Assembly (NCBI RefSeq): GCF_001854245.1
Contig: NZ_CP015381.1
Coordinates: forward strand, 3,569,001-3,633,000
DNA: 64,000 nucleotides
DNA from: Desulfococcus multivorans
Lineage (GTDB): Bacteria; Desulfobacterota; Desulfobacteria; Desulfobacterales; Desulfococcaceae
Direction: 5' to 3'
The notes beneath the pieces were generated by a model. That model saw only the letters and a list, made by a program, of their open reading frames with translations, had not been told where the DNA came from and ran no database searches. Both the position numbers and the translations under genes were made by a program. This document shows positions 32,495-53,178 of the stretch, piece by piece. The number at the start of each line of letters is the position of its first letter. The stretch's first letter is position 1.

Positions 32495-32525
32495 TAAGCC
32501 TTATCGGCCGTAAAAAAAGATGCAC

Positions 32526-35233: not shown

Positions 35234-35567
35234 TCGTGCAAGTCGCATATTTTGAGACTGGGCAATATTTCCTGAACATCCCTTCAGCACCATAATATCA
35301 GGTCAACCGTACCTGTGAATAAAGGGTTCGCCGGCGGCCCGATCCAGCCGATCCATGAATTTCCGTCCTTTTATGCAAGCGCCATCGCCCTGTTTGGGAT
35401 CCACAACGCCGCCTGCTTGATCAACAAAGCCATCCCCACAATGTTACGCCGTCGGCGGACTTGACCCGTCGTCCGGAGGAAGAAACGCATCAGTTTCGAT
35501 AAATACGGTCCACCCATGCCGGCATGTTGCATCCGGGATCGTTGAACGAGTCAAAGTGAGGTGGAAA

Positions 35568-37013
35568 ATGCGCCATCCAGCGAACAGTTTTACAGTTAAA
35601 GACCTGCTCTGTTTCCCCAACCTCTCCGCGCCGCTATCCTACTACTTCGTTCCTCTCCACGCCGATCTCGACCGCAGCGAAACCGGCACCCCGCTCTGGA
35701 ATCTCATCTCCCTGGGACAAACCGGCTACCTGATGTTGACCGCCGCCTGGCGCGCCTCCGAACAGTCGCTTGCCGCTCTGCGCACCGAAATTGCCCGGCA
35801 GGAGGCGATCGCCGACCCCACCACCCTCCGCCTGGCCCCGGCCCCGGCACAGGTTGCCCGCTGTAACCTGCTCCTGGGAGACGGCGCCGGGCAGTTCCAG
35901 GTGATAGCCACCAGCGCCACCTCCGGTATAGCGCCCTACTCAGCCCTGTTCAACCTTTTCCTGACCGAGGAGCAGTTTGCCGCGGTTGCCGCTGCCCTCA
36001 CCGGCAACCCCAGGCGCCTGGCGGTGGAGTACGACGTCGCCTTGGCGGCCCCGGTCACGGGCAGCGCCCGGTTCATCCCCCTTTCATCTCAACTGCTCCC
36101 CCGGCTGGCCGAATATCTCGACAGCGGACCGCCTGGCTTTCGCCTCGCCCTGCAGGCGGCGGTTGAAGAGGGCCTGGCAATGATCGATATGGACCTGCCC
36201 GAGCAGGCGTCCGAAGGGCTGGTCAACGACCTCTACAACCGGGTCCTCGCCCGTGCCGCCGAACGCCTGCCCAGGCTGATCCGCACCCGGCACGGCGATT
36301 CGCTCACCGAATTTCAGGTGATGGTGAGCCTGACGACGGACGCTTTCCAACCCTTCCATCCCCGGGTGGATCTGGCATCGCTGAATCTGACCGGAAACCC
36401 GATTGGTTTTGTCGCCTCACGAACCCATGAGGCCGGTGCCGGAAAACAAGCGAAGAAACAGGCCCGGACGCGACAACTCCGGTTGAACTTCGACCCGCGG
36501 GGCGCCCCCATTGCCTGGATCCGCCTGCAGTGGGAAACGGCGCATGCCGTGCTCAAACCTCCCCTTTTCGGACCTGTCCGTATGGCCGGTCCCGCAGACC
36601 AACCGTTACGCCTGACCGTCGGGTATACCGATGGGTCCCCCACATTCAGAAAGGAGTTGATGCCGTCGCATGAGACTGAAATGCCGTTACGTCCCGAAGC
36701 GGTGGGCCTGACCCGGCTTGTCGTCGATGCCCGGCCGTTTGCGGCTTCGAACGTCCGCCGGGTAAAAGTCCGGCTGAGCTATCATCCGCCGCACCGTCCG
36801 GCTCCCCGCCAGTATTTTATCCAGTTTGAAAAGGATTCCTGGACCACATGGATCTGGCTGGTCTCCCCCACCCGGGCTCCGGAGCACTACCTGGATGCTC
36901 GCTGGCAGATCGTTTGCACGGATGGGAGCATCATCACCCCATCCGCTGCGATTCTTCGTTCCTCGGATTCCGTTCTGACGCTTTCAGGAGAAAAAGCCGA
37001 TGTTACAAATTGA
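35568..37013 (+). CDS. Protein of unknown function, smallest member of the giant beta-rich paralogue group
   Basis: A 481-aa protein I do not recognise. No signal peptide or membrane helix is visible. The first ~200 residues look like a reduced form of the core shared by the other large proteins in this operon: an opening beta segment (LLCFPNLSAPLSYYFVPL), then near residue 120 YSALFNLFLTEEQ...ALTGNPRRLAVEYDV, which lines up with xxATFSLxLxxxG...PVGVxYDL in the paralogues. The C-terminal half is beta-rich with RRVKVRLSYHPP and WTTWIWLVSP, like the Ig-type modules of its neighbours. ATG 35568 follows GAGGTGG closely (an in-frame GTG lies at 35556). Its stop overlaps the next gene by 14 bases. 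Confidence 0.75.
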   Translation: MRHPANSFTVKDLLCFPNLSAPLSYYFVPLHADLDRSETGTPLWNLISLGQTGYLMLTAAWRASEQSLAALRTEIARQEAIADPTTLRLAPAPAQVARCNLLLGDGAGQFQVIATSATSGIAPYSALFNLFLTEEQFAAVAAALTGNPRRLAVEYDVALAAPVTGSARFIPLSSQLLPRLAEYLDSGPPGFRLALQAAVEEGLAMIDMDLPEQASEGLVNDLYNRVLARAAERLPRLIRTRHGDSLTEFQVMVSLTTDAFQPFHPRVDLASLNLTGNPIGFVASRTHEAGAGKQAKKQARTRQLRLNFDPRGAPIAWIRLQWETAHAVLKPPLFGPVRMAGPADQPLRLTVGYTDGSPTFRKELMPSHETEMPLRPEAVGLTRLVVDARPFAASNVRRVKVRLSYHPPHRPAPRQYFIQFEKDSWTTWIWLVSPTRAPEHYLDARWQIVCTDGSIITPSAAILRSSDSVLTLSGEKADVTN

Positions 37014-39354: not shown

Positions 39355-39384
39355 CAAGAACAGATGGATCCGAAAGAGGTGGTC

Positions 39385-39480
39385 ATGTCATCAGCTACCC
39401 TGCCAAGCAAGCCGCGGAATTTCACCCTTCCGGCTTGCGGCGGCAATTTTGACGTCAGGAGTCTGCTATGCTCTTTCTAA
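39385..39480 (+). CDS. Possible 31-aa coupling peptide between two giant genes
   Basis: An ATG preceded by AGAGGT opens a frame that ends with TAA 12 bases past the start of the next gene. The product begins MSSATLPSKP and ends RSLLCSF. An ATG at 39364 would add seven residues. There is no similarity I recognise; it may only serve translational coupling or be chance. Confidence 0.25.
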   Translation: MSSATLPSKPRNFTLPACGGNFDVRSLLCSF

Positions 39481-41795
39481 AGCCGCCGTATCTCATCATC
39501 GAAGGGGTTGCCGTCTTCCCCGACCATGCCAACGAGCGCCAGTTCTACTATCTGCCGGCAATGCCCCGAATATCCACCGTGTTTGATCCCACGGTTGGGC
39601 CGGATGGGGCTCAAATCCCGCAGATTTCGCTGATCAGGTTTCGTGACGCGCCCCAAAACGGCGGGTTTCTCACCTTTCAGGTCGACCTGGGCATCGACCG
39701 GGAGCGCCTGGATACCATTGCCGCCGAGTATAAGCGCATCACCCGGCTGCGCGATAACCCGATCCCCGCCCCGGTCATCCTCGAAAACGGCACCGTTCAG
39801 CTGATCATCCTGGGTGAAACAACGCCCCCACCGCCCGCAGCCGGCCGTCCGCCCGCCCCTCCCGACGATGCCGCCCGCCGGTTCGTGCTCAGGATCAACC
39901 CGCCCTATGCCGCCAAACCGGCGCTCTACGGCGATAATCAGGCCATCTTCTCGGTGGAACTGGACCAGGACGGCGTGCAGTTGATCGAAACCGCCCTGTT
40001 CCAGGGCGAACTGATGCCCGTCGGCGTCATCTACGCGTTGGACTTCTTCGCCCTGCGTCCCGCGTTCACCGTGAAAGTCAGCGCCGACTGGGATCGGGTC
40101 CAGACGCACTTTGAGGAGTCCTTCGGCTTTGATTACCTCTTTTCCTCGGTCGAGATCGACAATGTGGTGGACAAACTGATCGAAGATCGGGTGATCCGGA
40201 TCGACGTCGATTCCTTCCTCCCTGAGGGGGAAGACGCCGGATCCTGGGTGGGGCGGCGGGACCAGGCCGTCAACGACTTCAAGGATATGGTTCTGGAGAG
40301 CTTCTTCGCGCCCAGCATCGAACCCGTGAAGGAAGAAGAGGACGGCTGGGACAAGTTCACCCACACCGCCGAACGACTGTCCCTCCTGGCGGCCACGGGC
40401 GGCTGGGGCGGCGTCACCAAGTTTTCGTATAAGCGGATCGACTACACCCGCGTGGATCAGAAGCGCATCAACCTGACCATGAACGAACGGGTCAGCGTCA
40501 AGCGCAGCATTTATCCGCAGGCCAACCTCAGGGGTCTGGGTCAGCCCATCCGCGATCTGATCACTCAGGGTCTGGTCGATCCTTCGCGCTTCTTACAATC
40601 GGTGACGCTCAACGATCCCTGGTTCCAGAAACGGCAGGTCAAAGCCCACGCCCTGGTCAACTTTGACAACGACAGCGTCGAAGCGCTCAACCTGACCCTG
40701 AAGTACGGCAGTGAGCCGAAAACCCTGCGCCTGACCAGGACCGAGGCCTCCGGCCGGCAAGAATGGAACAGCATCATCGCCGGCGGGATGATGCAGCGCG
40801 ACGTGGCGTACCAGTATCGGGTGCTCTTCAAAAACGTCGATACGGCGGAACGCCCGGGGATCATCGATTCAGGCACCCTGACCACCCAGGGGGATGAGTT
40901 CGACCTCTCGCCCCGCGGCGAGGGACTCTATTTCATCGACGAGATCCAGTTCGGCGCCGACCTGCTTCCCTGGGAGCGGTTTCCGAACGTCTCGATCGAG
41001 GTGCGCTACACCGATGATCAGAATGACATCCACCTGGCCGAAACGTTTCTGCTCACCAGGGCCAGACCCGAGGCGACCTGGAAGCGCTTCCGCCTGGACG
41101 CCGCTCTCGACGGATACCAGGTGCGCATCGGCTATCTGGCCGCCGACCACCGCGACATCCATACCGGTTGGCAGACCACCAATCAGGAATTGTTCCTGAT
41201 CCGCGATCCGCGGCCGACCCGGCGCACGGTCCAGGTGATCCCGGCCGTCTCCTGGGAACTTGCCTCGATGGTCATCGTCGAGATGACCTACGTGGACGAA
41301 GCCAACGGCGTGGAAGAGCGACAGACGCTTTCGTTCTTCAATACCGATCAGGATCGCCTGCCCAAAACCTTCACCGCCAACCTGGTTGATCCCGAAAACC
41401 GTCTGGTCGGCTATACCGCCGCCATTTTGCTCAAAGACAACCGGCTGATCAACATTCCCAGCTCGACCACGGCCGCTTCGGCCATCTTTATCCGCACCGA
41501 CATGATCGGCCATCGCATCGTGACCGTCCAGCCGGCCCAGGTCAATTTTGCAGCAAACGGCATCCTGCGCATGGAAGCCGATCTGAATTTTGCCGACGAC
41601 GGGGCCGGGCTGAGCTTTGCCGACAGCTTCACGTTCTGGTCACCTGGGGAGACGGGGTTCTTCGAGTATGACTATACCTCCGCCGAACGCAATAAATACA
41701 CCTGTAAGGCGCGGTTGGTGATGGCCAACGGTCTGGTCCGGGAGCGGGACCTCGGCCTGCTCAATGGGGATCGGTTGATCCTGCCCGCGGCATAG
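39468..41795 (+). CDS. Giant beta-rich paralogue, 775 aa, unknown function
   Basis: The second clear paralogue. The core starts PYLIIEGVAVFPDHANERQFYYLP, has NGGFLTFQVDL, then KPALYGDN-QAIFSVELDQDG near residue 148 and LMPVGVIYALDFFALRPAF, with a following helix (DWDRVQTHFEESFGFDYLF). A Pro/Ala-rich insert (TTPPPPAAGRPPAPP) interrupts the core. Residues ~330-400 (YKRIDYTRVDQKRINLTMNERVSVKRSIYPQ) match GYDFRYNR...QRSYAPQG-type segments in the 41850 protein. About three Ig-like modules follow (VSIEVRYTDDQND, MVIVEMTYVDEANG, LRMEADLNFADDG). No signal peptide. CAGGAG stands six bases before the ATG. Confidence 0.8.
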   Translation: MLFLKPPYLIIEGVAVFPDHANERQFYYLPAMPRISTVFDPTVGPDGAQIPQISLIRFRDAPQNGGFLTFQVDLGIDRERLDTIAAEYKRITRLRDNPIPAPVILENGTVQLIILGETTPPPPAAGRPPAPPDDAARRFVLRINPPYAAKPALYGDNQAIFSVELDQDGVQLIETALFQGELMPVGVIYALDFFALRPAFTVKVSADWDRVQTHFEESFGFDYLFSSVEIDNVVDKLIEDRVIRIDVDSFLPEGEDAGSWVGRRDQAVNDFKDMVLESFFAPSIEPVKEEEDGWDKFTHTAERLSLLAATGGWGGVTKFSYKRIDYTRVDQKRINLTMNERVSVKRSIYPQANLRGLGQPIRDLITQGLVDPSRFLQSVTLNDPWFQKRQVKAHALVNFDNDSVEALNLTLKYGSEPKTLRLTRTEASGRQEWNSIIAGGMMQRDVAYQYRVLFKNVDTAERPGIIDSGTLTTQGDEFDLSPRGEGLYFIDEIQFGADLLPWERFPNVSIEVRYTDDQNDIHLAETFLLTRARPEATWKRFRLDAALDGYQVRIGYLAADHRDIHTGWQTTNQELFLIRDPRPTRRTVQVIPAVSWELASMVIVEMTYVDEANGVEERQTLSFFNTDQDRLPKTFTANLVDPENRLVGYTAAILLKDNRLINIPSSTTAASAIFIRTDMIGHRIVTVQPAQVNFAANGILRMEADLNFADDGAGLSFADSFTFWSPGETGFFEYDYTSAERNKYTCKARLVMANGLVRERDLGLLNGDRLILPAA

Positions 41796-41849
41796 ACGCC
41801 GGCGTCATGCAACGGCACCAGCCTCCCGCAGAATGAGAGGGAACATCCT

Positions 41850-44800
41850 ATGTTAATGACAGGCAGCAAAGTACAGACCATCGAAGGGATCACCGTTTTC
41901 CCGGATCATGCGGACCAGCAGCAATGGTGGTACCTGCCGGGTCCGGTAGGGCTGGCCCGGCGGAATAACGTCTCCCAGTTCACCCTCATCCGCTACCGCC
42001 CGGCCGTCGCCGACGGCGGCGTGCAGGGAGGCGGCTTTTTGACGATGGAGGTGGAACTCAGGCTCCTGCCCGCAGTGGAACGCGAGATCCTCAGCAGGCT
42101 CTCGAGCATGACCACCGGCCGGCCGCGGCTCTCCGTCGTTCCCTTTGACGAGGGCACGGTCCAGATCGTCGCCCTGAACATCCAGGGCAGCGGGGGCACC
42201 AACGCTCCCGCTCCCTTGCCGGGCGCCTTTGTGGCGGTCGAAGCCGTGCTGGGCGCCACCAAACCCTCCCTGGCCGGCAACAACAATGCCGTCTTCAGCC
42301 TGACCCTCAGCCAGGAGGGTTCGATTATCCTCGATCAGGCCTTCCGCCAGGGGGCCATGCCGGTCGGCGTCATCTATGACTTGAAATACACCGCCCTGCA
42401 GCCCGCCCTGGACGTCGAGATTAAAGCCAACTACAAACGGATCTACGACCACCTGAGTATGGGCATCGATCTGAGCGCCGGCGCGGTGATCTACGGCGTT
42501 CCGGTCTTTCTGGAGGCGGGCATCGACCTCGCCTTTGAAAAGCTCAGGCAGGACGGGGTGATTGAGATCAAGGTGATTAACTTCGCCAACAGCGCCGACG
42601 CTGCCGAGAAGGAGCAATGGGCCCTGGATTTCTTCAAGCAGCAGATCCTGGCCGAATGGTTCAAGCCCACCCTGCCTCCGGTCACCTTCGACAACGGCGG
42701 GACCCGCCCGCCTACCGGGACGGGCACCCCGACCGGGACGGGCACCTCGACCGGGGGTGGTGCGTCTACCGGGGGCGGTGCCTCCACCGGGGGCGGTGCC
42801 TCCACCGGGGGCGGTGCCTCCACCGGGGGCGGTGCCTCCACCGGAGGTGGTGCCTCCACCGGGGGCGGTGCCTCCACCGGGGGCGGCGCCTCCACCGGGG
42901 GCGGCGAACAACCCGAGAGTGGCGGCGGCCGGCTCATCGCTCGCTCCCCCACCAACCCGGTCGCCGCCGTCAAACCCCCTGCCCGGGAATCGCTCGGGCT
43001 CGTCGCCCCTCAATCGGTGGTCCGTGAAGTGTGGGCCTACCCCTTCCTGGAGACCGGACGCCAGGCCGCCCGCCTGGAGAAACGCGTCGAGCCGCCCACC
43101 CCCGGTTATGATATCCAGCTTTCCCAGCTCGCCACGAGCGACCAGGTGACCCTGACCTTTCTGGGCGGGGAAACCGCTCCGTCCGTGCGCATCAACCAGG
43201 TTGTGCAGACCCTGACCGACCAACGCCGGTTGACGCTGGATGTCGCCCCCGGGGCGTCCCTCGACATCAAGGCCGACTACCCGGCGGCCCCCGCCGTGCA
43301 GCAGGCGTTCCGCCTGTTCTTCGACTTTGACAAACCCCGCCCCCAGAACTGGTCGGTCCAGCCGCCCAGCCCCAGCTACCAGGGCTATCTCAACAACCGC
43401 ACCAACCCGCTCGACTCGCGATTTGAAACCAGCACCGGCGGATCAACCGTTCCGATCGGCGGGGCGCGGGGCGCCGACGCCCTCCGCGCCTGGCTGCAAA
43501 ACGTCCTGGGTTCTCCGAAGCGGGTCAGCGTGGATGCGTATGCCAGTTATGAAGGAGATCCCTCCAAAGCCGCCCACAACCGGGAGCTGACCCAGCGCCG
43601 CCTCGACGCGGCGATTGGCATCATCGGCAGCGCTGCCCAGATCACTTCCAGCGGCGCTCACGGCTTTGACGACGCCCATCAGGCCGGGCGAGTCAGCGAC
43701 CCGAACGATCGGGTGGTGCTCGTCCGCGGCGCTTCCGCCGGGGGCAGGGCCGTCTCCATCCAGGGCACGCTCACCCGTCCGGCACCAACAGGCGGCGGCC
43801 AGCCGGCAGGCGGCGGTCAGCCAACGGGCGGCGGTCAGCCAACGCCCACCATCCCCAATATGCCGCCCATGGGCATCCGGCTGGCCTTCAGCCTGAAGAA
43901 GATCCAGCAGATCGAAGACAAAACCTTCACGCTCCGCTATAACCGTCAGTCGACCGTGCAGCGCAGTTACGCCCCCCAGGGATTGCTCCGTCTGCTGGCC
44001 GCCGACCTGGACGGACCGCCGCACTTCATTGAAGTCGACCTTGACAGTCCGTTCTTCCGCAAGCTCGACCTGGAGATTCAGGCGCCGCCCGTCTTCGAAC
44101 AGATCGGGCTGCTCAAGTCCGATGTCGCCATCGAGTACGGCCGGCCTTCCGAACCGGCCACTTTCAAGTTCAAAGACGTCAGCTTTCGCCCCGGCGGGCC
44201 CCAGATCGAGCATGCCGCCTTCTTCCTCAACTCCCGGCTCGACCTGAATTACAGCTACACGCCCCAATACCACTTCGATCCCCTCTCCGGCTGGGACGGC
44301 GAAAAGCTCAGCTACGATCTGCCGAGGACCGCCACCCTGGACCGCACGCTGCTGATCAACCCCTTCCGCGACTTCGGCTTTATGGAAGTGAAGGTCGTCC
44401 CCGGTGACCTGGACCCGGGCATGATCGACTCGACCGAAGTCCACCTGCACTATGAAGACCCGGGCAAGTGGTCGCGAGACAAAGTCCTCACCGTTCAACC
44501 CTCCGGCCCCACCCAGACCTGGAAGCTCAGATTGAGCGATCCGGAGCGGCGCGAGTTCAGCTATCGCTTCGTTCACCGCCTCAAGGACGGCACCACCCGG
44601 GAAACCCGGCCCATCTCGACCGGCATCCCCTCGGTCACCGTGAACGACCCGTTTGAAGAACCGTTGATCGTCGAGTTCTTCCCCAACTACGACGGCTCCA
44701 CGATCAACACCGTGTTTGTGAAGGTGGTCTATGCCGACCCACCCAACCGGATCCGCCGGGAAGAACAGCTGCGCTTCGTCGGGACGACCCAGGAATCCCA

Positions 44801-46415
44801 GCGGCTGCGCTTCGCCCGCCTGGATCCGACAGTGGACACGATTTCCTTCCAGATCACGATCCTCGGCAAGGACAACTCCGTCCGGCAGCTTTCTGCCGTG
44901 ACCACGGAAAACTCAATCATCTTTCTCGGTGAACATTTGACCGGTGAATCGATAACCAAAAGGAGAACAACAATGGAAAGGACGACCAGCCACGGCACGG
45001 AAGCCTACAAGGGGGCAGAAGGAAAGAATTACGGATACCAGCAGCCAACCGAAGGAGGAAAAGGCGCCGAAACCAACCCGTCGGATGGGGACAAGCGCCA
45101 ACTGGCCAGGGAAACCTTCGACAATTTGCTGGAGATCTTGTTTGGAGACACAGGCGGTACCCAGCCCGGCGGAACGACCACCGGTCAGCCCGACGGCAGC
45201 GGCGCCTACACGCCGGGCACGCCCACGCCGGGAACGGGTACCACCACCAATCCCGGCGGGCAGCCGCCCTCTGCGGAACAGCCCGCCGCCACTCCCGACA
45301 GGGGCGGCCACGCCGAGGAAGCCTTCGGGATTCCCGTCGGTTCCGTGCGCGAAAGCTTCCGTATGGAACGCGCCAGAGAGCAGGTTCGCAGAGCGGCATC
45401 CATCCAACCGTCTCCGGCCCCGACCGTGACATCCGGTCATCCGGCGGCCTACAAGCACCAGTCCGACGCCAACCGGGCGCCGTTCCGATCCGAGCGCATC
45501 TTCGCACCTTCCTATGGTCAGCATGGCCGCAGCGCGGTCCAAACCATGGAAGTCGTGGCCGCGTCAGCCGGCGCCGCCGGCCGGCCGGAATCCGCCCCCG
45601 CCGCCCCGCGCCTGGCCGGCATTCCGCTGGACGCCTACTGGGCCAGCTTCGGCTCGGCCGCTGAACGCGCCCAGGAACGCATCAGGATTGCCGCCAAGCC
45701 GGAGGCCGTGACGAGGCAAGTGCTCGAAATGATCATCGGCGCGGACGACCGCATCCAGGTCAACAACACTCAGGTCTATCCATGGCGCTGTATCTGCTCG
45801 CTGCTGATCACCGCCCAGACCGGCGGCATGTACCTTGGCACCGGCTGGCTGGTCAGCCCGCGCCTGCTGCTCACCGCAGGACACTGTGTGTACATGGCGG
45901 ATGAAGGCGGATGGGCCGCCCAGATCGAAGTGATTCCGGGCCGAAACGGCACGACCTATCCCTACGGCAGCGTGATTTCCCGCGATTTCCGCAGCGTGAT
46001 GGGCTGGACGGTCGACAATGACCGCGACTATGACTACGGCGCCATCCTGCTGCCCGAAGACCACCGCCTGGGCGACCAGTTGGGCTGGTTTGGCTTTGCC
46101 AATCGCGCCGACAGCCACTTGAGCGGTCTGACCCTCAACCTGGCCGGCTACCCTGGTGACGGCGGCCCGACCCACCAGGACGGCACCCAGTGGTTCAATT
46201 CCCGGGCGGTCAGCACGGTCAGGGAACGCCAGATCACCTATGAGATCGACACCTATGGCGGCCAGAGCGGATCCCCGGTCTGGGAGCTTTCTTCGGATGG
46301 CAGCCGGTACGGCGTGGGCATCCATACCTGGGGCACCACCGTCAACAACGGTGCCACCCGCATCACCCAGGACGTGTTCGACAACATCGTTTCCTGGACG
46401 GCGCAGGTGCCGTGA
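41850..46415 (+). CDS. Giant 1521-aa fusion: paralogue core, GGGAST repeats, OmpA-like segment, Ig-like modules, trypsin/V8-like protease
   Basis: Residues 1-270 are the paralogue core (VQTIEGITVFPDHADQQQWWYLP; KPSLAGNN-NAVFSLTLSQEG near 137; PVGVIYDLKYTALQPAL). Residues ~285-355 are Thr/Gly-rich with eight GGGAST units. Residues ~487-632 resemble an OmpA-like fold (LFFDFDKP; VSVDAYASYEGD; NRELTQRRLDAA). Residues ~690-1030 are beta modules as in the paralogues (GDLDPGMIDSTEVHLHYED). Residue 1042 is a Met preceded in the DNA by AAAGGAGA; after it come ~270 Pro/Gly/Ala-rich residues and a chymotrypsin-fold serine protease: H1345 in LLTAGHC, D1395 in DYDYGAIL, S1473 in GGQSGSP, the V8/glutamyl-endopeptidase pattern. 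No signal peptide. It may be translated both as a fusion and as a separate 480-aa protease. GAGAGGGA precedes ATG 41850. Confidence 0.85.
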   Translation: MLMTGSKVQTIEGITVFPDHADQQQWWYLPGPVGLARRNNVSQFTLIRYRPAVADGGVQGGGFLTMEVELRLLPAVEREILSRLSSMTTGRPRLSVVPFDEGTVQIVALNIQGSGGTNAPAPLPGAFVAVEAVLGATKPSLAGNNNAVFSLTLSQEGSIILDQAFRQGAMPVGVIYDLKYTALQPALDVEIKANYKRIYDHLSMGIDLSAGAVIYGVPVFLEAGIDLAFEKLRQDGVIEIKVINFANSADAAEKEQWALDFFKQQILAEWFKPTLPPVTFDNGGTRPPTGTGTPTGTGTSTGGGASTGGGASTGGGASTGGGASTGGGASTGGGASTGGGASTGGGASTGGGEQPESGGGRLIARSPTNPVAAVKPPARESLGLVAPQSVVREVWAYPFLETGRQAARLEKRVEPPTPGYDIQLSQLATSDQVTLTFLGGETAPSVRINQVVQTLTDQRRLTLDVAPGASLDIKADYPAAPAVQQAFRLFFDFDKPRPQNWSVQPPSPSYQGYLNNRTNPLDSRFETSTGGSTVPIGGARGADALRAWLQNVLGSPKRVSVDAYASYEGDPSKAAHNRELTQRRLDAAIGIIGSAAQITSSGAHGFDDAHQAGRVSDPNDRVVLVRGASAGGRAVSIQGTLTRPAPTGGGQPAGGGQPTGGGQPTPTIPNMPPMGIRLAFSLKKIQQIEDKTFTLRYNRQSTVQRSYAPQGLLRLLAADLDGPPHFIEVDLDSPFFRKLDLEIQAPPVFEQIGLLKSDVAIEYGRPSEPATFKFKDVSFRPGGPQIEHAAFFLNSRLDLNYSYTPQYHFDPLSGWDGEKLSYDLPRTATLDRTLLINPFRDFGFMEVKVVPGDLDPGMIDSTEVHLHYEDPGKWSRDKVLTVQPSGPTQTWKLRLSDPERREFSYRFVHRLKDGTTRETRPISTGIPSVTVNDPFEEPLIVEFFPNYDGSTINTVFVKVVYADPPNRIRREEQLRFVGTTQESQRLRFARLDPTVDTISFQITILGKDNSVRQLSAVTTENSIIFLGEHLTGESITKRRTTMERTTSHGTEAYKGAEGKNYGYQQPTEGGKGAETNPSDGDKRQLARETFDNLLEILFGDTGGTQPGGTTTGQPDGSGAYTPGTPTPGTGTTTNPGGQPPSAEQPAATPDRGGHAEEAFGIPVGSVRESFRMERAREQVRRAASIQPSPAPTVTSGHPAAYKHQSDANRAPFRSERIFAPSYGQHGRSAVQTMEVVAASAGAAGRPESAPAAPRLAGIPLDAYWASFGSAAERAQERIRIAAKPEAVTRQVLEMIIGADDRIQVNNTQVYPWRCICSLLITAQTGGMYLGTGWLVSPRLLLTAGHCVYMADEGGWAAQIEVIPGRNGTTYPYGSVISRDFRSVMGWTVDNDRDYDYGAILLPEDHRLGDQLGWFGFANRADSHLSGLTLNLAGYPGDGGPTHQDGTQWFNSRAVSTVRERQITYEIDTYGGQSGSPVWELSSDGSRYGVGIHTWGTTVNNGATRITQDVFDNIVSWTAQVP
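42762..42905 (+). repeat. Eight tandem 18-base units encoding GGGAST
   Basis: Units read GCCTCCACCGGGGGCGGT with few third-position changes (first unit GCGTCT..., fifth ACCGGAGGTGGT). Near-identity at silent positions shows recent expansion by slippage or recombination. More degenerate Thr/Gly units lead in from about 42704. The encoded linker joins the core to the OmpA-like part. Confidence 0.95.
44958..44975 (+). promoter_or_regulatory. Internal Shine-Dalgarno and in-frame ATG before the protease part
   Basis: AAAGGAGA followed after 7 bases by ATG (44973-44975), in frame with the 41850 gene at codon 1042. The codons across the site (ITKRRTT) look like translated ribosome-binding sequence rather than domain sequence. 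Confidence 0.7.
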
Positions 46416-46522
46416 ATGCAGAAGATCGCCAAGACCCGACGCTGCTTAAACGCCGGGTCTCGGCGCTCGGAAAACCGGGGCCGGCGGACGAACGTCCGGC
46501 TTCCGCGGATGAGGAAGGTCGG

Positions 46523-46789: not shown

Positions 46790-47804
46790 CGACCCGAGCC
46801 GCGTCGACACTCTCCATCCGGCGCTCGACCAGGCGCTGGCTGCATTCCCGGCGGAATTGGCCGCCCGTGCCGCCGCCGCGCTGCAGTACCTGCTGCGGGA
46901 ACGCCTCGCCGGCGGCGGCAAAGACGCCTGGACTTCCAGCCGTCTGACGGGTGATGGTTTTCCGGTCGAGATCACCTTTACCACCGCCGATCAGCGGCTG
47001 CGCTACACCGTCGAACCGGCCGGCCCCCGGGCAGCTCCTGCAGAGCGGCTGGAAACCGCCATGCAGGCCGTCACCGATCTGGGCCCGGCTCCGATTTCCG
47101 CGGAAACGGCCGCCGCCTTCCGCAGCCTGCAACGCCCCGGCGGTCTCTTCTTTGGGGCCTATGTGGGCGGGCGACACAGTCCGGCGGACGATCAGTTCAA
47201 ACTCTATGTGGAAACGCCCTTCGAGGCGGCAACCGACGGCTCGCTGCCGGCGGGGCCGGCAGGCCTGCTCGGTGACTACCCGCAGCCGCGCCGGATCGAT
47301 CGCCCCGTCCACCTGCGTATGATCGCCTGGTCTCCGGCCTCCGACCAGTGGGAACTGTATTACCGGGTCAAGGATCTGGCCCCCCACCACCTGGCCGCCG
47401 TGCTGGCGCCCGCCGGTCTCGCCCACCTGGCCGACGAGCTGGAAGGTTATCTCCGGGAAACCTATGGCCATGCTTTTGCCGAACGGCTGCCGGGCGAATC
47501 GGTCGGGGTCAGCTATACCTGGCAGGCGGGCGAGACGGCGCACACCGCCACCCTGTTTTTTTTCGCCCGTACCTTCTGGGGGGGCGACGCCCGCATCCGG
47601 CGGGAGTTTGGGCGCTGGTCCACGGCTCTGGGCTGGGATGATCGCGAATACCAGCGGGTTACAGCGCCGCTGGCCGGCCGCCGCCTGTGGAAAACGTATC
47701 ACGGCATCCTGGGCGTCACCCTGCTGCCCACCGGGGAACCGGCGCTCAGCATCGGTGTTCGCCCGCCGGAAACGACCCTGAAAACCCCGGCAGGCAAGCG
47801 GTGA
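46782..47804 (+). CDS. Protein of unknown function, 340 aa (possible prenyltransferase-like fold)
   Basis: I do not recognise this with certainty. It is soluble, with alternating alpha/beta character and Arg/Lys/Tyr on predicted strands: FPVEITFTTADQRLRYTVEP, GAYVGGRHSPADDQFKLYVE, WELYYRVKDL, SVGVSYTWQAG, TATLFFFARTFWGG, ALSIGVRPP. Five such strand blocks with conserved basic and Tyr positions recall ABBA-type aromatic prenyltransferases, and the next gene encodes a terpene-cyclase-like protein, but this is only a suggestion. Start at ATG 46782 inside the preceding gene; the GTGA at its end overlaps the next start. Confidence 0.72.
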   Translation: MNSDPSRVDTLHPALDQALAAFPAELAARAAAALQYLLRERLAGGGKDAWTSSRLTGDGFPVEITFTTADQRLRYTVEPAGPRAAPAERLETAMQAVTDLGPAPISAETAAAFRSLQRPGGLFFGAYVGGRHSPADDQFKLYVETPFEAATDGSLPAGPAGLLGDYPQPRRIDRPVHLRMIAWSPASDQWELYYRVKDLAPHHLAAVLAPAGLAHLADELEGYLRETYGHAFAERLPGESVGVSYTWQAGETAHTATLFFFARTFWGGDARIRREFGRWSTALGWDDREYQRVTAPLAGRRLWKTYHGILGVTLLPTGEPALSIGVRPPETTLKTPAGKR

Positions 47805-48640
47805 ATCCGGCGGCGGCCGAAATCGCACGCCTGCAGGACCCGGACGGCTGCTTCCCCTCCGAAGTGCTGGATCGGGAAGGTCGGCGCCCGGACTGCAACG
47901 GCTTTACCACGGCCCTGGTGCTGCGCCAACTGCGCCACCTGCCGGACGAGGTCCTGCCGACACGGACGTACTCCGCCGCCCTGGACTTCCTGGAAAGCTG
48001 CCGATCTTCCCAACTGGAAGGGGCTTTCGGCTTCCGGCCGGAGACGCAGCGCCCCGCCTGGGCACCCCGCCTGCCCGCCGACCTGGATGATACCGCCATC
48101 CTGACCCTGGAGTTGCTGCGGGCCGGACGGATCAGCCGTCGCGCCGGGTTGCGGACCGTCCTGACCGTGCTGGTTCCCCATCGGTTTTCGGGCCGGACGG
48201 GCGAGATCTACCCGCCCTGGGTCATGCCCGGGGCCTTCCTGACCTGGGTGGGGAAACCGGGCCGGCGCAACGTGATCGACTGCTGCGTGAATGCCAACGC
48301 CGCAGCGCTCATGGCCCGGGTGGGCGGCGCCGGCCTCCCCGGATACGCCGAAGCGGTCGGCACAATTACCCAGGGCGTCGCCTGGGCCGGCGGGCAGCCC
48401 AGCCGACAGCAGGCTGTCACGCCCTTTTATCCTTCGATTCACGGCTTGCACGAAGCCGTCGAACATGCCGTGGAATGCGGAGTGACCGACCTGGGCCCGA
48501 CCCTCGCCCGGCTGCGGGAGCTGGCGGCCGGCGCTCCCCCCGCCCGTGGCTGCTGCTGCAGCGCTTACGGGGGCACCGTCTGGAGCTGTCCCGCCCTGGT
48601 CGCCGCCCAGGCGCTGCGCCGGATCCAAATGTCAGCCTAA
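47801..48640 (+). CDS. Alpha/alpha-toroid protein with DxDDTA motif (class II terpene-cyclase-like)
   Basis: A 279-aa protein starting at GTG 47801, which overlaps the preceding stop by 4 bases. It looks like the prenyltransferase/squalene-cyclase toroid: repeated helices, LQDPDGCFPSE at the start, and D-L-D-D-T-A (about residue 98) matching the DxDDTA acid motif of squalene-hopene and class II diterpene cyclases. VIDCCVNANAAALMA and FYPSIHGLHEAV are also seen in short bacterial members. At under 300 aa it is less than half of a squalene cyclase (about 630 aa), so it is either a single-domain cyclase or a non-catalytic relative. The Cys cluster GCCCSAYGG near the C-terminus is unusual. Confidence 0.72.
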   Translation: MNPAAAEIARLQDPDGCFPSEVLDREGRRPDCNGFTTALVLRQLRHLPDEVLPTRTYSAALDFLESCRSSQLEGAFGFRPETQRPAWAPRLPADLDDTAILTLELLRAGRISRRAGLRTVLTVLVPHRFSGRTGEIYPPWVMPGAFLTWVGKPGRRNVIDCCVNANAAALMARVGGAGLPGYAEAVGTITQGVAWAGGQPSRQQAVTPFYPSIHGLHEAVEHAVECGVTDLGPTLARLRELAAGAPPARGCCCSAYGGTVWSCPALVAAQALRRIQMSA

Positions 48641-48714
48641 CGGCGCCGGGTTGATGAAACCGTGTTGTTATCTCCCCGATCGTGGGTGGATTCATCATTC
48701 AGGAGGATATTGCG

Positions 48715-51700
48715 ATGTCATTCTTTGGCTATCCGGATCTTGATCGCCCCATCCCGTTTGAGGACGGTATGATTTACTACCCCTTCGGGGGCGGGCCCTT
48801 TGCCCTGACCCCCAACCGCTGTTCGGTAGCCGAACAGGCAGACGACCGGGTGGGTTTTTCCCTCGACCTGTACCGTCCGGCACTGACGCTGCCTGGAACA
48901 CAGGGCTATGCGCTCCTGGAAATGCGGCTCAACGCCCAATACGCCACGGATAAGGCACTCAACCGGATTCGCAGCCGGCACCCGAACGCCACCCTGTCGA
49001 ATTGCGCCCTGACCGACTGGTACTTTCGCCTGGTCCCGGGAGCCCTCGGCCTGAACCTTCCTCCGGAGTTGCTGGCGCCCGTCCAGCTCGCCGCCAACAA
49101 TCTCGGCTCGGCCCGGCTGGTAATCCGGCTGTCGTTGGAAGGCGGTTTGATCCTGAAGGAGATCCTCTGCAACAGCCTGCAGCCTGTCTACGCCGTCGCC
49201 GAAGCCCGGATGCAGGGAATTTCGCCAAGGGTAGACGCCGTCGTCCGCTTCCGGGCACAGGAATTGCTCCCCGCCATCGCCGCCGCGGCAGGCGGCCGCC
49301 TGTCCCGGCAGACCCTGGTCAACTTCTTCACACAGGATCCAGCGGGCCTGCCCGCCGAGATCACCGGGCGGACCGACCTCATCCAGACTCCGGCCTTCAG
49401 GGAAGCGATGGTCGATCGGATCATCGCCCGCTTTGGCACTTATCTGCCGGCCGCCGAGGACTTAAACGACCCGGATATCCAGCTTCAGGCCCCGGATGAC
49501 GGCGACAGGGACATCTTTTGGTCACTCTCCCAGCCGTTCCCGGCCTCCCGCAGCGTCGTGATGCAGTTCGATGCCCTCTCCGGCGTCCGCCGCCGGCTTC
49601 AGGCGTTGGGCAGCGAGGTTTTCATTCATCAGCACACGGCCGCCGCCCTGACCGAACTGGAGCAGTCGCACCTGATGATCTTCTGCAACCTGCCCATCCA
49701 GCGGATCGGCGTCGCCGCCATCGGCGCCAACCTGACCTTTCCGCCCAACCCCCCGGACCGCCCGCAAAGCAGGCAGATCACCGTGACGCTCGAGCCGCCG
49801 GACGATCTCGTCCAAACCCAGGTCAGACTGTCGCCCGGTGAAAGCCTGCAGTACCGCTACAACACCTTTGCGGTCATCGCCGACGACCTGGGGGTGCGCG
49901 AAGTTCACGGCCCCACCCTTTCCGGGTCCGGATCGCCGCTACGGCTTTTCCCCAACCAGTTCCCGATTGAATTCGCAACCATAGAAGCCACCCCCGAATT
50001 GCTCGGCCTCGCCGCCCTGACCGGGACCTGCGGCTACCGCTACGGCGGGCAGGAACACAGCCTGCCGTTCAGCCTCGATGACGGGCGGCCCTCCATCAGC
50101 CTGTCCCTGCCCCAGGGCAGCGAAGCCGTCAGCCTCACCTGCACGGCTGCGGATCGCTTCACCGGCAAGCAGCTCCGACTCCGGCCCTTCGAGTCCTGGC
50201 CGGTTCTCCTGGATTTGGTTACCTTCCCCGAATATGGCTACCACGAAGTGGAAATAACCTGCCGGTTTGACCGGGGGGAGCGCCTGTACGCCATAGAAGT
50301 CCTGCCCGTCCTGGCCGGTGAAACCTTTGACAACATGACCACCCTGGTCTTTACCCCCGACCAACCCAGCCGGCGCTACGGCTGGTTCGCCCCCTCCCCC
50401 TTCCATCCCGAGTTCCGCTACCGCCCTTACGCCGCCGGCGGCCCGCCAGAGGCCTGGCAGACCGTCCCGTACCCGGTCGAACGCCTGACCATCCAGCCCC
50501 GGCAGCCGGAAACCCGCCCGGTGCGGGAAATGCCGGTCCTTTCTGAACGGATGACCCCGCGGCCGGAACGAATACCCCTCCAACCCCATAGCGAAGCCGC
50601 CGAGGCCGGCGTCAGACAATGGCCGAAAGGGGTGCCCATCTGCCCGCAGCCCGAACCCACCGATACCCTGCTCTACAGCCTGCCGGGCGATCCCTCCGTA
50701 AAACTGTACATTCCCCGGTATTCGCTCGACATCCTGAGCGTCTCCGGGCAGCAGCGCTACCGGATCGCCATGGCCGACCATGGTGGCGTCGCTTCGCTCA
50801 CCGTCGGCCTGGTCAAGGGTTTGGCTCCGGCCATCCAGGATGCCGGCCGCGACGCTCAGGAATACCCGCACGAGATCGCCGTCTCCCTGGACTTTCTCCC
50901 TCAACCGCCGTCCGGCGCCCGGAAAACCCTGTCCTTCCAGGAGGTGACGGTCCAGGGAGCGGTGATCACCGCCAAACTGACCTTTGCCACGCTCCAGGAG
51001 CGGGACAACGTCTTCCAGGCCCTGACCCAAACCGACCGCCAGGCGCGCCTGATCGTCAAGCGGGTGATCGAAGTGGCCCTGCCGCGGACGGCCCCGCCGA
51101 AGACCGACTTCAACGACATCCGCGTTAAGAAGGTCACCGCCGGCCTGCCGCCGCGACCGCTGACCGCAACGCTCCAGCCCAATCTGCTCAACGCCGGCAT
51201 GCGCGTTCCCGCCGGCAGGATCACCCCGATCAATACCCCCGATCCGCTGAATATCGCGGTGGTGGTCCGCCCGGTGAACACGCGCCATTCAACCGACACC
51301 CGCCGCCCGGTCAATACCCTGACCGCCGTCGACACCAGTCTGTTGGGCAACGTGGAGCGCCACCCGAACCGCATACACCTGCGGACAAGCGAGGCAAGCC
51401 GGTTATCCGGCTTGCAGCCCGACCTCACCAATCGCGTCACCGGGCGCCTTACCCGCTTCCCACCCACCTTCCCGCCGATCATCAATCGCGGCTTACCCGT
51501 GCCGGTGCTGGCTTTTCTCGGTAAAGAGACCATCACCGTGGGCGGCACCGCTTTCGTCCAGGTGAATTTGAGCGTTACCAACTGGCAGGACTACGCGAAT
51601 GATGACTTCAAGCCCTCGCCCGACCTTCCCCCCTGCGGCAAGAACACCAACGCCTCCCGCACCTGGGTGGATATCTACGACGCCGCGGCCAACCGGCGGC

Positions 51701-53178
51701 TATATGGCTTTTGCGCGCTCTCATCGCCCAGAACCCTGACCCGGTTGTGGTTTCGGGTGCCGGCGGGAAAACTGCCGAAGCAGGTCTACGTTCAGCTCGA
51801 AGACCGGCGCACCAAGGTGGTGCGCAAATCCGACCCTGTCGAGACGCGTTCCGCCAAACCCCAGCCGCCCCAATACCTGGAAGCGGTCCGGGAGCTGGAT
51901 CAGACGGTCCAGCCCGCCCCGTTCACCTTCCCCTACAACCTGCACGGCTACATATTCCAGGGCATCGTCCCGGGCACCGACGCCGGCAGCGGCCTGATTC
52001 GCTACCGCCTGCAGTCCCAGGGGAAATTCCACACCTATCTGCAGGACAGCGCCAACCCGAAGATGGTGTACTACTTTCCCGATGAATTCAAGATTGCCCG
52101 GCGGCAGGAAGCGCCGTTCACCCCCTTTATCACCGTCCGGGTGGCCTCCCGGACCGGCACCCAGGACACCGATGTCCTGTTTGACTATATCGTTGCACCA
52201 TACACCCACCTGCAGCGCCTCGACGAGGCGCGTCCGGCGTTGCTGGCTGAGCCCCGGTTTGGCGCCGCCACCGTCGAATTCCAGCCTTTCCTGACCAGCG
52301 ATGTGCGCTTCTTCATCGACCGGCCCACTGAGCGGGGGTCGGTGCAGGAGGAACGCACCGGGGTCTCTCTCGTCCTGCAGGATTTGATCAAAGACTCGCT
52401 GGTGATGAAACTGCCGGACTTTCGCGTGCTCTTTGATGCGCTGCAGCGCGACACCGCCTCGCTGTTCCTGGGACGGATGGAGATCGAAGTGCCGGGTGAA
52501 AACAAAGAGGTGATCCCCTTCACCGCCCGCCTGGACGACCTGGTGGGAGAGCTGTTCCTGTACGGCGTCGAGGCGGGCAGCGATGCCGGCTACAATGTCT
52601 CGCTGCTCAATGCCATCGAAAGCCCACTGCAGATCGACGCCTTGAACGTCAGCCTGCACCTGAACGGACAGACCCTGCCCGCGATTACCCAGGGATTGAC
52701 CTTCCCGATACGGAATCTGGCCTCCGGCGCCAAAGTCGATTTCAAGGTCGTCCCGCAATTCCCGATCCCGGGCTCGCACCCTCCCGAAATACGCATCAGC
52801 CTGCAGGACGTGCAGGTCCTGCCGGATGCAGCCGCCGTCTGGGACAGCATCCTCGACCGCACCACCCTGGAATATTTCAACACCATCACGGTCAAAGCCA
52901 TCCCGACCCTCTTTACCCCGGTGGCCGGCCGCGAGGACGAACAGATCAGCGTCATTCTCGTGGAGTTCCAGGGCGGCGGCACCGCCGAATTGACGGCGAG
53001 CCGGCTCGAGGCGCAGGTACGCATTGACTACCCGATTGATGATGTCATCCTGCGCCGAGGCCTGGACGAAACCTACAGCTACACCGTTACGGTTATCCGG
53101 GTGAATGGAAGGCAGGATCGGGATCCCGAGCCGCGACGACAATCCGCCCAGCTCTTCTACGTGAGCGTACTCAAGTAA
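48715..53178 (+). CDS. Giant beta-rich paralogue, 1487 aa, unknown function
   Basis: The longest intact member of the group. A divergent core occupies about residues 1-260: IPFEDGMIYYPFGGGPFAL, YALLEMRLNAQY, then near 124 AANNLGSARLVIRLSLEGGLILKE and PVYAVAEARMQGISPRVDA, in the same order as in the paralogues. The rest is beta-rich with many short modules (YHEVEITCRFDRG, DILSVSGQQRYRIAM, TITVGGTAFVQVNLSV, QISVILVEFQGGG). Residues ~840-960 are a Thr/Asn/Arg-rich stretch. No signal peptide or membrane helix is seen, and no enzyme motif. A strong AGGAGG lies 9 bases before ATG 48715; an in-frame ATG at 48682 is less likely. It is the last gene of the operon and is followed by a hairpin. Confidence 0.8.
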   Translation: MSFFGYPDLDRPIPFEDGMIYYPFGGGPFALTPNRCSVAEQADDRVGFSLDLYRPALTLPGTQGYALLEMRLNAQYATDKALNRIRSRHPNATLSNCALTDWYFRLVPGALGLNLPPELLAPVQLAANNLGSARLVIRLSLEGGLILKEILCNSLQPVYAVAEARMQGISPRVDAVVRFRAQELLPAIAAAAGGRLSRQTLVNFFTQDPAGLPAEITGRTDLIQTPAFREAMVDRIIARFGTYLPAAEDLNDPDIQLQAPDDGDRDIFWSLSQPFPASRSVVMQFDALSGVRRRLQALGSEVFIHQHTAAALTELEQSHLMIFCNLPIQRIGVAAIGANLTFPPNPPDRPQSRQITVTLEPPDDLVQTQVRLSPGESLQYRYNTFAVIADDLGVREVHGPTLSGSGSPLRLFPNQFPIEFATIEATPELLGLAALTGTCGYRYGGQEHSLPFSLDDGRPSISLSLPQGSEAVSLTCTAADRFTGKQLRLRPFESWPVLLDLVTFPEYGYHEVEITCRFDRGERLYAIEVLPVLAGETFDNMTTLVFTPDQPSRRYGWFAPSPFHPEFRYRPYAAGGPPEAWQTVPYPVERLTIQPRQPETRPVREMPVLSERMTPRPERIPLQPHSEAAEAGVRQWPKGVPICPQPEPTDTLLYSLPGDPSVKLYIPRYSLDILSVSGQQRYRIAMADHGGVASLTVGLVKGLAPAIQDAGRDAQEYPHEIAVSLDFLPQPPSGARKTLSFQEVTVQGAVITAKLTFATLQERDNVFQALTQTDRQARLIVKRVIEVALPRTAPPKTDFNDIRVKKVTAGLPPRPLTATLQPNLLNAGMRVPAGRITPINTPDPLNIAVVVRPVNTRHSTDTRRPVNTLTAVDTSLLGNVERHPNRIHLRTSEASRLSGLQPDLTNRVTGRLTRFPPTFPPIINRGLPVPVLAFLGKETITVGGTAFVQVNLSVTNWQDYANDDFKPSPDLPPCGKNTNASRTWVDIYDAAANRRLYGFCALSSPRTLTRLWFRVPAGKLPKQVYVQLEDRRTKVVRKSDPVETRSAKPQPPQYLEAVRELDQTVQPAPFTFPYNLHGYIFQGIVPGTDAGSGLIRYRLQSQGKFHTYLQDSANPKMVYYFPDEFKIARRQEAPFTPFITVRVASRTGTQDTDVLFDYIVAPYTHLQRLDEARPALLAEPRFGAATVEFQPFLTSDVRFFIDRPTERGSVQEERTGVSLVLQDLIKDSLVMKLPDFRVLFDALQRDTASLFLGRMEIEVPGENKEVIPFTARLDDLVGELFLYGVEAGSDAGYNVSLLNAIESPLQIDALNVSLHLNGQTLPAITQGLTFPIRNLASGAKVDFKVVPQFPIPGSHPPEIRISLQDVQVLPDAAAVWDSILDRTTLEYFNTITVKAIPTLFTPVAGREDEQISVILVEFQGGGTAELTASRLEAQVRIDYPIDDVILRRGLDETYSYTVTVIRVNGRQDRDPEPRRQSAQLFYVSVLK

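What the first reader, a model, noticed from the sequence alone, without database searches (positions are those of the whole stretch)
35568..53178. Undescribed operon of five giant, signal-less, beta-rich paralogues
Eight genes in one direction with overlaps or gaps of at most 113 bases encode five large proteins (481-1521 aa). They share an N-terminal block order: ~20-residue beta opening with xxDHxxxxxFYYLP, a GGGF turn, then near residue 120-150 a KPxLxGNNxAxFSLxLxxxG segment and PVGVIYDLxFxxLxPAxxV. Ig-like modules follow. I know of no named family or system with this set. The extra genes (protease domain, OmpA-like segment, CnaB-like protein, toroid protein) suggest a multi-protein assembly with its own processing enzyme. 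Assembly, surface display or defence are all only hypotheses.
Basis: partly seen in the sequence, partly recalled or inferred. Interest (0 to 1): 0.92.

Follow-up and report, generated by a model that had tools for sequence, protein, structure and literature searches.

The report
Mobile giant-protein system with swappable proteases
A block of eight linked genes, most of them for large, related, undescribed proteins, recurs across distant bacteria, sometimes beside or fused to one of several unrelated cutting enzymes, which suggests a new kind of multi-protein machine, possibly for cell defence or controlled cell death.

Summary
Window 35556-53178 is a tight eight-gene block. P0002, P0003 and P0004 are clear paralogues; ortholog profiles tie P0001 and the N-terminal part of P0008 to the same ~280-residue core, and the C-terminal part of P0008 only weakly. 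The core matches no family in Pfam, NCBIfam, PHROGs or PADLOC and no PDB fold significantly. Beta-sandwich modules follow it in the P0003 model.

I hold 26 clusters of this type in four named phyla, a Fibrobacter MAG and the window's unnamed phylum. Subunits 2-3-4 are consecutive in 22 of 26. Occurrence is patchy and the tree conflicts with taxonomy, so the block moves horizontally. P0006 is a remote DMATS (prenyltransferase) homologue; P0007 carries an invariant DxDDTA motif, but its toroid fold could not be confirmed.

Seven of 26 clusters hold a recognised protease, of unrelated folds: V8-type (fused to P0004 here), caspase, EAD1-trypsin. A simpler type pairs one core protein with a caspase in 11 of 11 related genomes. 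Five of five V8-type proteases keep a Glu just before the expected mature start, suggesting self-activation.

Best reading, moderate confidence: a mobile multi-subunit scaffold that holds and releases a protease, probably for conflict or regulated death. An extracellular role is the main rival.

The parts
35556..37013 (+). P0001 (485 aa; 481 from ATG 35568): short core subunit plus extra C-terminal part; family 1
   Evidence: core homology by profile only; orthologs next to P0002
37000..39354 (+). P0002 (784 aa): core plus further modules related to those of P0003; no cysteine; 45% identical to the G346 ortholog
39468..41795 (+). P0003 (775 aa): core (about 1-280) plus four beta-sandwich modules (about 376-775)
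   Evidence: AlphaFold2 model pLDDT 80.5, pTM 0.41; fold searches
41850..46415 (+). P0004 (1521 aa): core, low-complexity linkers, weakly OmpA-like segment, modules related to P0002/P0003, linker, C-terminal V8-type protease
41850..42689 (+). P0004 core domain (residues 1-280), modelled alone
   Evidence: pLDDT 84.6; best PDB E 0.017, best VIA Z 4.7
43230..43800 (+). Weakly OmpA-like segment of P0004 (residues 461-650)
   Evidence: profile A9: 10 of 11 sub-threshold PDB rows are YfiB (8), PA0833 (1) or YiaD (1), E 0.31-0.79, OmpA-C relatives by recall; the top row (KtrA, E 0.063) is not; PF00691 not found here
45627..45653 (+). LDAYWASFG motif before the protease domain, shared with L037 and L038; only ASFG in L057
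   Evidence: position
45726..45728 (+). Glu1293, last residue before the predicted mature protease start (E-MIIGADDR)
   Evidence: Glu in this place in 5 of 5 V8-type proteases; position; cleavage is inferred
45729..46412 (+). Protease catalytic domain; His1345, Asp1395, Ser1473 present; His1492 in GIHTWG
   Evidence: PF00089 38.9 bits (cut-off 20.6); glutamyl endopeptidase 1p3c E 2.2e-21; residues
46412..46789 (+). P0005 (125 aa): CarboxypepD_reg / CnaB-like small beta protein
   Evidence: PF13620 66.1 bits (cut-off 32.3); a like gene sits beside the V8-type proteases of L037 and L057
46782..47804 (+). P0006 (340 aa from ATG 46782): remote DMATS/ABBA prenyltransferase homologue; KLY at 47199, ELYYRV at 47352
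   Evidence: TIGR03429 matches 8 of 13 members, best E 2.7e-5, far below its cut-off; profile to DMATS structure 6zrx E 5.8e-4
47801..48640 (+). P0007 (279 aa from GTG 47801): unclassified protein with DLDDTA at 48080; squalene-cyclase-like toroid only by motif
   Evidence: D-x-DDTA invariant in 8 of 8 clean orthologs; no Pfam match; no toroid among PDB rows up to E 10
48715..53178 (+). P0008 (1487 aa from ATG 48715): fusion of two subunits, 8N and 8C, that are separate genes in most relatives

Best explanation
The block encodes one horizontally moving multi-subunit system. Shown by sequence: paralogous subunits with a shared ~280-residue core, with beta-sandwich modules in at least P0003 and its close paralogues, kept in a fixed order across phyla; usually with a DMATS-like protein, often with a DxDDTA protein, and in about a quarter of clusters with a protease of one of several unrelated folds. 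Inferred: the subunits form one large leaderless hetero-oligomer that senses a stimulus and holds a protease as a zymogen. In the window the V8-type protease is tethered to subunit P0004 and would free itself by cutting after Glu1293. Once free it cuts Glu-containing targets, as a conflict or regulated-cell-death response; relatives use a caspase or an EAD1-recruited trypsin in the same role. P0006 and P0007 are taken to modify or regulate the assembly; this step is the least supported.
For: Core homology among subunits. Subunits 2-3-4 consecutive in 22 of 26 type A clusters (in the window the family-4 gene is listed there by its protease part). Distinct proteases in or beside the cluster: V8-type in the window, L037, L038 and Paracoccus; caspase in L039, L040, L042; Trypsin_2-EAD1 in Paracoccus and Caldilineaceae; matrixin-EAD1 in Caldilineaceae. 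On the P0003 tree the V8-type and caspase states need 3 changes over the 18 rows scored of 23. Three of the five EAD1 copies of the Caldilineaceae genome lie beside its cluster. A third type, one core protein without the other subunits, has a caspase 3.7-4.2 kb away in 11 of 11 genomes; where scanned, the caspase carries peptidoglycan-binding domains (3 of 3), and CHAT-TPR (3 of 3) and subtilase (3 of 3) genes lie upstream. Catalytic residues intact. Glu before the mature start in 5 of 5. Patchy distribution and tree conflict with taxonomy. Published precedents for swapped proteases in bacterial immunity: PMC12799240 (passages) and PMC7159879 (passages and section 32).
Against: Nineteen of 26 clusters gave no match to the protease queries; two of these hold unverified Cys-peptidase-like genes, several are cut off, and trypsin families were not searched genome-wide. 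No EAD1 in the window's genome, and only 2 of 22 cluster genomes have any, one of them far from its cluster. No nuclease, pore former or STAND ATPase was recognised in the window block. Subunits 2-4 are cysteine-poor (0.12-0.15% against 0.82% in 105 neighbours) and related subunits are exported in type B, which fits an extracellular role better. P0003 and the P0004-type core have no phage or viral-contig relative in the searches made, and no defence-island test was made. Type C genomes are of one order, so 11 of 11 is not 11 independent events. No assembly was modelled.
Confidence: 0.4

Rival explanations
1. Extracellular or surface assembly: a leaderless giant complex that leaves the cell by lysis or an unknown route, binds cell walls through the OmpA-like segment and carries proteases or other enzymes as cargo.
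For: Type B relatives of the same subunits carry signal-like starts (31 of 35 sequences at or above hydropathy 1.9; profile matches). Cysteine depletion of families 2-4. V8-type proteases are known as secreted enzymes (recalled). Sub-threshold OmpA-like rows and PG_binding domains on type C caspases. The Paracoccus cluster also holds PLD and tyrosinase genes.
Against: No signal-like start in any of 112 type A sequences. Depletion is weaker in family 1 (0.42%), 8C (0.33%) and 8N (0.70%), and exported type B subunits are not uniformly cysteine-poor (0.00-0.91%). P0007 is cysteine-rich (2.85%), as expected inside the cell. EAD1 neighbours in two lineages point to cytosolic signalling. Flanks were not searched for secretion genes, so their absence is not shown.
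Confidence: 0.33
2. A biosynthetic machine: P0006 prenylates and P0007 cyclises a small molecule or peptide, the giant proteins scaffold the pathway, and the proteases mature a precursor.
For: DMATS-like P0006, DxDDTA motif of P0007, P450 genes annotated beside the Pararhizobium cluster and a P450-like ORF by eye beside L120.
Against: No P0006 or P0007 relative was found in type B and type C loci examined or in several complete type A clusters (L039, L040, L041, L049). P0006 is far below the DMATS cut-off and a diphosphate-site Lys of DMATS aligns with a conserved Glu (site roles recalled). P0007's cyclase fold is unconfirmed. P450s were not searched for systematically.
Confidence: 0.1
3. A structural or adhesive protein set with incidental protease neighbours.
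For: Ig/FnIII-like modules resemble adhesins and receptors; most clusters gave no protease match.
Against: Protease fused in frame to P0004 in the window; caspase linkage 11 of 11 in type C; no anchor or signal recognised.
Confidence: 0.15

Closest known systems
EAD / EACC1-caspase / NucA-trypsin conflict systems (PMC7159879; passages and section 32 read)
   Same: Constant core plus variable proteases (trypsin, caspase); EAD1 coupling in two of our lineages; patchy distribution
   Different: No EACC1, NucA, MoxR-vWA or GAP1 component was recognised; the constant core here is a set of paralogous giant proteins; the window's genome has no EAD1
EACC2/TRADD-N caspase systems with ECF sigma factor and TPR protein (PMC8195603; passages read)
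   Same: Type C loci also combine a caspase, a sigma-70 region 2 protein and a TPR protein
   Different: Type C has a giant core protein, a CHAT domain and a subtilase; whether it shares EACC2 or TRADD-N was not tested
canu caspase-nuclease and trypsin-nuclease immunity (PMC12799240; passages read)
   Same: Unrelated proteases recurrently paired with one conserved partner; Ig-like folds and TPR proteins in the loci
   Different: No nuclease recognised in the window block or in the L122 type C proteins scanned
V8/glutamyl endopeptidases (S1B)
   Same: Window protease domain aligns with 1p3c over residues 1295-1502 and keeps the triad
   Different: Fused behind about 1,290 residues of a scaffold protein with no signal peptide
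DMATS aromatic prenyltransferases
   Same: P0006 is a remote homologue; KxY kept
   Different: Far below the curated cut-off
Type B exported cluster in the window's phylum (no description found)
   Same: Same core and matching subunits (P0004-B810, P0003-B598/B660, P0008C-B495)
   Different: Signal-like starts; a different sixth gene; no P0006, P0007 or protease relative seen

Membership tests
Glutamyl endopeptidase (V8-type, S1B) | Trypsin-fold domain with His, Asp, Ser triad | tested here: met
   PF00089 38.9 bits against cut-off 20.6; best PDB match 1p3c E 2.2e-21; H1345, D1395, S1473
Glutamyl endopeptidase (V8-type, S1B) | Cleavage after Glu | not testable with these tools
   Only the pocket His in GIHTWG seen; signature recalled
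EAD-coupled conflict systems | EAD1 domain in the system | tested here: not met
   0 matches in G000; 2 of 22 genomes positive, one with copies beside its cluster; also met in Paracoccus
canu / trypsin-nuclease systems | Protease paired with a gated nuclease | tested here: inconclusive
   No nuclease family in the 8 window proteins, but the cores match no family at all, so a remote nuclease could be missed
Gasdermin systems | Gasdermin pore protein beside the protease | tested here: inconclusive
   No family match in the 8 window proteins; folds of P0001 and P0008 not modelled
DMATS aromatic prenyltransferase (TIGR03429) | Score above the curated cut-off | tested here: not met
   23.7 bits against 163.85
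DMATS aromatic prenyltransferase (TIGR03429) | Homology to solved DMATS structures | tested here: met
   Profile of 13 sequences to 6zrx E 5.8e-4 and 6zry 6.5e-4 over positions 56-296; remote
Squalene-hopene cyclase / class II cyclase | Family or structure match for P0007 | tested here: not met
   No Pfam match; profile of 8 clean orthologs: no cyclase among PDB rows up to E 10. Weak SQHop matches in a looser set (2 of 11) include L050 (20.9 bits against 26.1), whose kinship to P0007 is not supported (hhalign 2.9%)
Squalene-hopene cyclase / class II cyclase | D-x-D-D motif | tested here: met
   D-x-DDTA in 8 of 8 clean orthologs; motif meaning recalled
OmpA-like peptidoglycan-binding domain (PF00691) | Match to PF00691 | tested here: not met
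   None of three genome places lies in the window; only sub-threshold relatives
Known anti-phage systems (PADLOC) | Match to a system gene beyond the protease domain | tested here: not met
   Only Avs1b 13.7 bits and LmuA 12.1 bits, both on the protease domain
CarboxypepD_reg / CnaB-like | Match to PF13620 | tested here: met
   66.1 bits against cut-off 32.3, P0005

The most novel reading that the evidence does not exclude
A new class of bacterial immune or cell-death machine, spread by horizontal transfer across at least four named phyla: a large hetero-oligomer of paralogous subunits built on a core fold with no PDB match found, which tethers a self-activating protease zymogen and lets evolution swap that protease for a caspase or an EAD1-trypsin. 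An exported sister lineage (type B) would have turned the same assembly to work outside the cell.
Probability: 0.33. Interest if true: 0.92.

Novelty: categorically new. Interest (0 to 1): 0.78.

Why it matters
A conserved block of about 17.6 kb, most of whose proteins match no named family, recurs as a unit across phyla. Recurrent linkage to caspases, EAD1-trypsins and a fused V8-type protease would make it a new entry point to bacterial programmed death or immunity, and the core may add an unseen fold. Clusters in named strains (Lysobacter, Streptomyces, Microbacterium, Nonomuraea, Hydrogenophaga) make it directly testable.

Tried and rejected
Phage origin: P0003 has no match in 50,697 phage records, and profile A3 (P0004-type core) no relative in viral contigs; other subunits were not tried. 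Plasmid-borne only: just 3 plasmid records match P0003; two are sibling Paracoccus plasmids, of which I used one. Standard families: nothing beyond chance-level rows for P0001, P0002, P0003, P0007 and P0008 in four libraries.

Core fold: the best PDB match had E 0.017 and the best VIA Z was 4.7 over 108 residues; this does not show that the fold is new. In BFVD one Medusavirus stheno protein of unknown function matched at E 6.7e-7; its sequence could not be checked. Whole P0003 matched TEP1, alpha-2-macroglobulin, C3 and many FnIII chains, none above Z 7.5: a common beta-sandwich arrangement, so a complement-like reading was dropped.

P0007 as a toroid: I first took the weak squalene-cyclase matches of a loose ortholog set as support. 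A recheck with 8 clean orthologs found no such structure, and the toroid-like proteins of L050 and L030 did not align with the P0007 profile (2.9% and 17%). The toroid call is withdrawn to 'by motif only', and I lowered the biosynthetic rival from 0.12 to 0.10 for it.

Cys-peptidase-like genes at L046 14122 and L029 18179 looked C39/papain-like by eye, but Pfam gave nothing for either, a PDB search with the L046 one gave nothing, and the two do not match each other; they are not counted as proteases. P0006 and P0007 as proven enzymes: not claimed. Empty site in relatives: the downstream gene's best matches in 5 same-genus or same-family genomes are only 31-35% identical, so no boundary could be read.

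Papers: searches returned no paper; the listings (15 of 52 shown; titles and abstract starts) showed none that describes this set, apart from the two EAD papers then opened. Open-licence PMC only. (6 of 13 listed) brought PMC12799240. So 'undescribed' means not found by these searches.

Not carried through or dropped: two borderline Burkholderiales-order matches, G569 and G1017, the sibling Paracoccus plasmid H3, and five of the eleven type C loci (only six regions were read).


Full report
WHAT IS THERE. The window (G000:C1:3569001-3633000 of an unnamed 4.46-Mb one-contig genome) holds eight same-strand genes at 35556-53178. Four-base GTGA overlaps join P0004/P0005 and P0006/P0007, and P0008 has an AGGAGG site before ATG 48715, as expected of one transcription unit. 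All four P0003 matches in the genome lie inside this block.

ARE THE FIVE RELATED? Single sequences relate P0002, P0003 and P0004 strongly (phmmer E 2.6e-21 to 7e-42) and P0008 to P0004 only weakly (BLAST E 0.001). Profiles of orthologs raise this to E 1.9e-66 (P0002-P0003), 1e-49 (P0003-P0004 core), 9.5e-15 (P0001-P0003) and 6.2e-10 (P0004 core-P0008N); P0008C stays weak to the type A families (50% at best); P0006 and P0007 show nothing. So the claim of five related giants stands for the core, though the written motifs fit three of them.

STRUCTURE. P0003 was modelled with 31 sequences (pLDDT 80.5, pTM 0.41, so the arrangement of domains is uncertain): an alpha/beta core to about residue 280, then four beta-sandwich modules. 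The sandwiches resemble FnIII/Ig-type modules in general. The core of P0004, modelled alone with 42 sequences (pLDDT 84.6), has no PDB match below E 0.017 and no VIA Z of 5 or more. One giant-virus protein (Medusavirus stheno) matched at E 6.7e-7.

RELATIVES. With the window, G346 of the same order, Pararhizobium and Paracoccus plasmids and two clusters of the order of G579 I hold 26 type A clusters: Actinomycetota, Chloroflexota, Acidobacteriota and Pseudomonadota, a divergent Fibrobacter MAG, and the window's unnamed phylum. From the listing: subunits 2-3-4 consecutive in 22 of 26 (not in L029, L030, L050, L056); the order 8C-8N-(1)-2-3-4 in 16 of 26 (17 if the doubled family 2 of L029 is allowed), while the window and L037 have P0008 downstream; family 6 in 16 of 26; family 7 in 11 of 26. 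Misses include clusters cut by contig or stored ends (L043, L045, L050, L052 among them). Type B, a six-gene cluster with signal-like starts, was read in eight genomes of the window's phylum, with subunits matching P0004, P0003 and P0008C.

TYPE C. In the order of G579, 16 of 342 genomes matched A4: 4 with type A, 11 with a single core protein, 1 borderline not examined. All 11 single-core genomes have a caspase 3.7-4.2 kb from the core match; the two type A genomes put beside them (G906, G910) have none. Where scanned, the caspase carries PG_binding domains (3 of 3 proteins), and neighbours include CHAT-TPR (3 of 3), subtilase (3 of 3) and a sigma-70 region 2 protein (1 of 1). Two of the six regions read (L124, L125) lack genes of those sizes upstream.

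PROTEASES. Seven of 26 type A clusters hold a recognised protease in or beside them: V8-type in the window, L037, L038 and Paracoccus; caspase in L039, L040, L042; trypsin-EAD1 in Paracoccus and L038. The other 19 gave no match to the query proteases. Caspases occur in 16 of 22 cluster genomes, but inside the cluster in only 3. On the P0003 tree (23 rows) the V8-type and caspase states need 3 changes over the 18 rows scored (L043, L045, L052, L029 and L046 left out because their slot is cut off or unclear). His-Cys dyads are intact in 6 of 6 complete caspases; the 157-aa second copy in L039 lacks them. In 5 of 5 V8-type proteases (two of them from one Caldilineaceae genome) a Glu stands just before the stretch that aligns with the mature start of known glutamyl endopeptidases (that mature start is recalled). 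LDAYWASFG before the protease is shared by the window, L037 and L038.

EAD1. Only 2 of 22 cluster genomes hold EAD1; in G577 (Caldilineaceae) 3 of 5 copies flank the cluster, in G584 the single copy is on another contig. In Paracoccus a trypsin-EAD1 and an EAD1 protein precede the cluster, followed by an AAA_16 ATPase with sub-threshold STAND/NACHT matches. This supports a conflict context in two lineages and does not hold for the window.

P0006 AND P0007. P0006 homologues match DMATS in 8 of 13 members, far below the curated cut-off, and their profile matches DMATS structures at E 5.8e-4. KLY is nearly invariant, but a Lys of the DMATS diphosphate site aligns with a conserved Glu (site roles recalled). 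P0007 keeps D-x-DDTA in 8 of 8 clean orthologs, but no family or PDB match supports a toroid. Activity is unproven for both.

TRANSFER. The window's P0003 is nearest to an Actinobacteria MAG (66%, clade support 100/100), not to G346 of its own order, which groups with Nitrotoga and an alphaproteobacterium. A mis-binned MAG contig cannot be excluded. Frequency is low: 5 of 297 phylum genomes match P0003, the other four being type B; 8 of 291 in the order; 1 of 301 in the phylum of G577, that genome itself; 3 of 349 in the order of G581, one certain. One same-genus and four same-family genomes have no P0003 match.

LOCATION. No type A sequence of 112 shows a signal-like stretch, whereas 31 of 35 type B sequences do. 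Families 2-4 average 0.12-0.15% cysteine against 0.82% for 105 neighbouring proteins of 400 aa or more, about 10% of which are as low; families 1, 8N and 8C are less depleted (0.42, 0.70, 0.33%), and exported type B subunits range from 0.00 to 0.91%. This fits extracellular use of families 2-4 but is not decisive.

JUDGEMENT. That the block is one conserved, mobile system is well supported. That the protease is a tethered, self-releasing zymogen is likely from sequence. That the purpose is defence or regulated death is inferred from context and stays close to even with an extracellular role. The closest published systems share the logic of a constant core with swappable proteases (PMC7159879, passages and section 32; PMC8195603, passages; PMC12799240, passages), but their defining parts were not found in the window.

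Noticed in passing
window 32422-32603: tRNA-Lys and tRNA-Glu genes lie about 3 kb before the block, a common kind of insertion site; no boundary was tested.
   Followed up: no
window 33225-34916: Upstream gene has a signal-like start and two CxxCH motifs (CVTCH, CAGCH), so a di-haem cytochrome c peroxidase/MauG-like protein by eye.
   Followed up: no
window 62279-63988: 569-aa ORF that reads like an IS transposase (by eye).
   Followed up: no
L038 16311-20846 and L058 1-4164: The Caldilineaceae cluster carries several extra tandem copies of the P0008C and P0008N families behind the main set.
   Followed up: partly
L122-L127: Type C loci: single core protein, a second 840-1007-aa unknown protein, and a caspase with peptidoglycan-binding domains, in the order of G579.
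   Followed up: partly
L012-L015, L032-L035: Type B: six-gene exported relatives in the window's phylum whose first gene (about 436 aa) has no Pfam match in L014.
   Followed up: partly
L030 28729-30825: A 698-aa Paracoccus protein at the P0006/P0007 position looks like a toroid fused to an ABBA-type part by eye; Pfam finds nothing, NCBIfam only a weak SCO2321 match.
   Followed up: partly
L036 16251-19970: A methylamine dehydrogenase gene set lies next to the Paracoccus cluster.
   Followed up: no
L120 15819-17033 (reverse-complement coordinates): A 404-aa ORF behind the G906 cluster looks like a cytochrome P450 by eye; P450 genes are annotated beside the Pararhizobium cluster too.
   Followed up: no
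model of P0004 core: A Medusavirus stheno protein of unknown function (A0A7S7YF07) is the only match below E 0.001 of the core in the viral structure library.
   Followed up: no
L056, L084, L085: A divergent cluster of the same families sits in a Fibrobacter succinogenes MAG.
   Followed up: no
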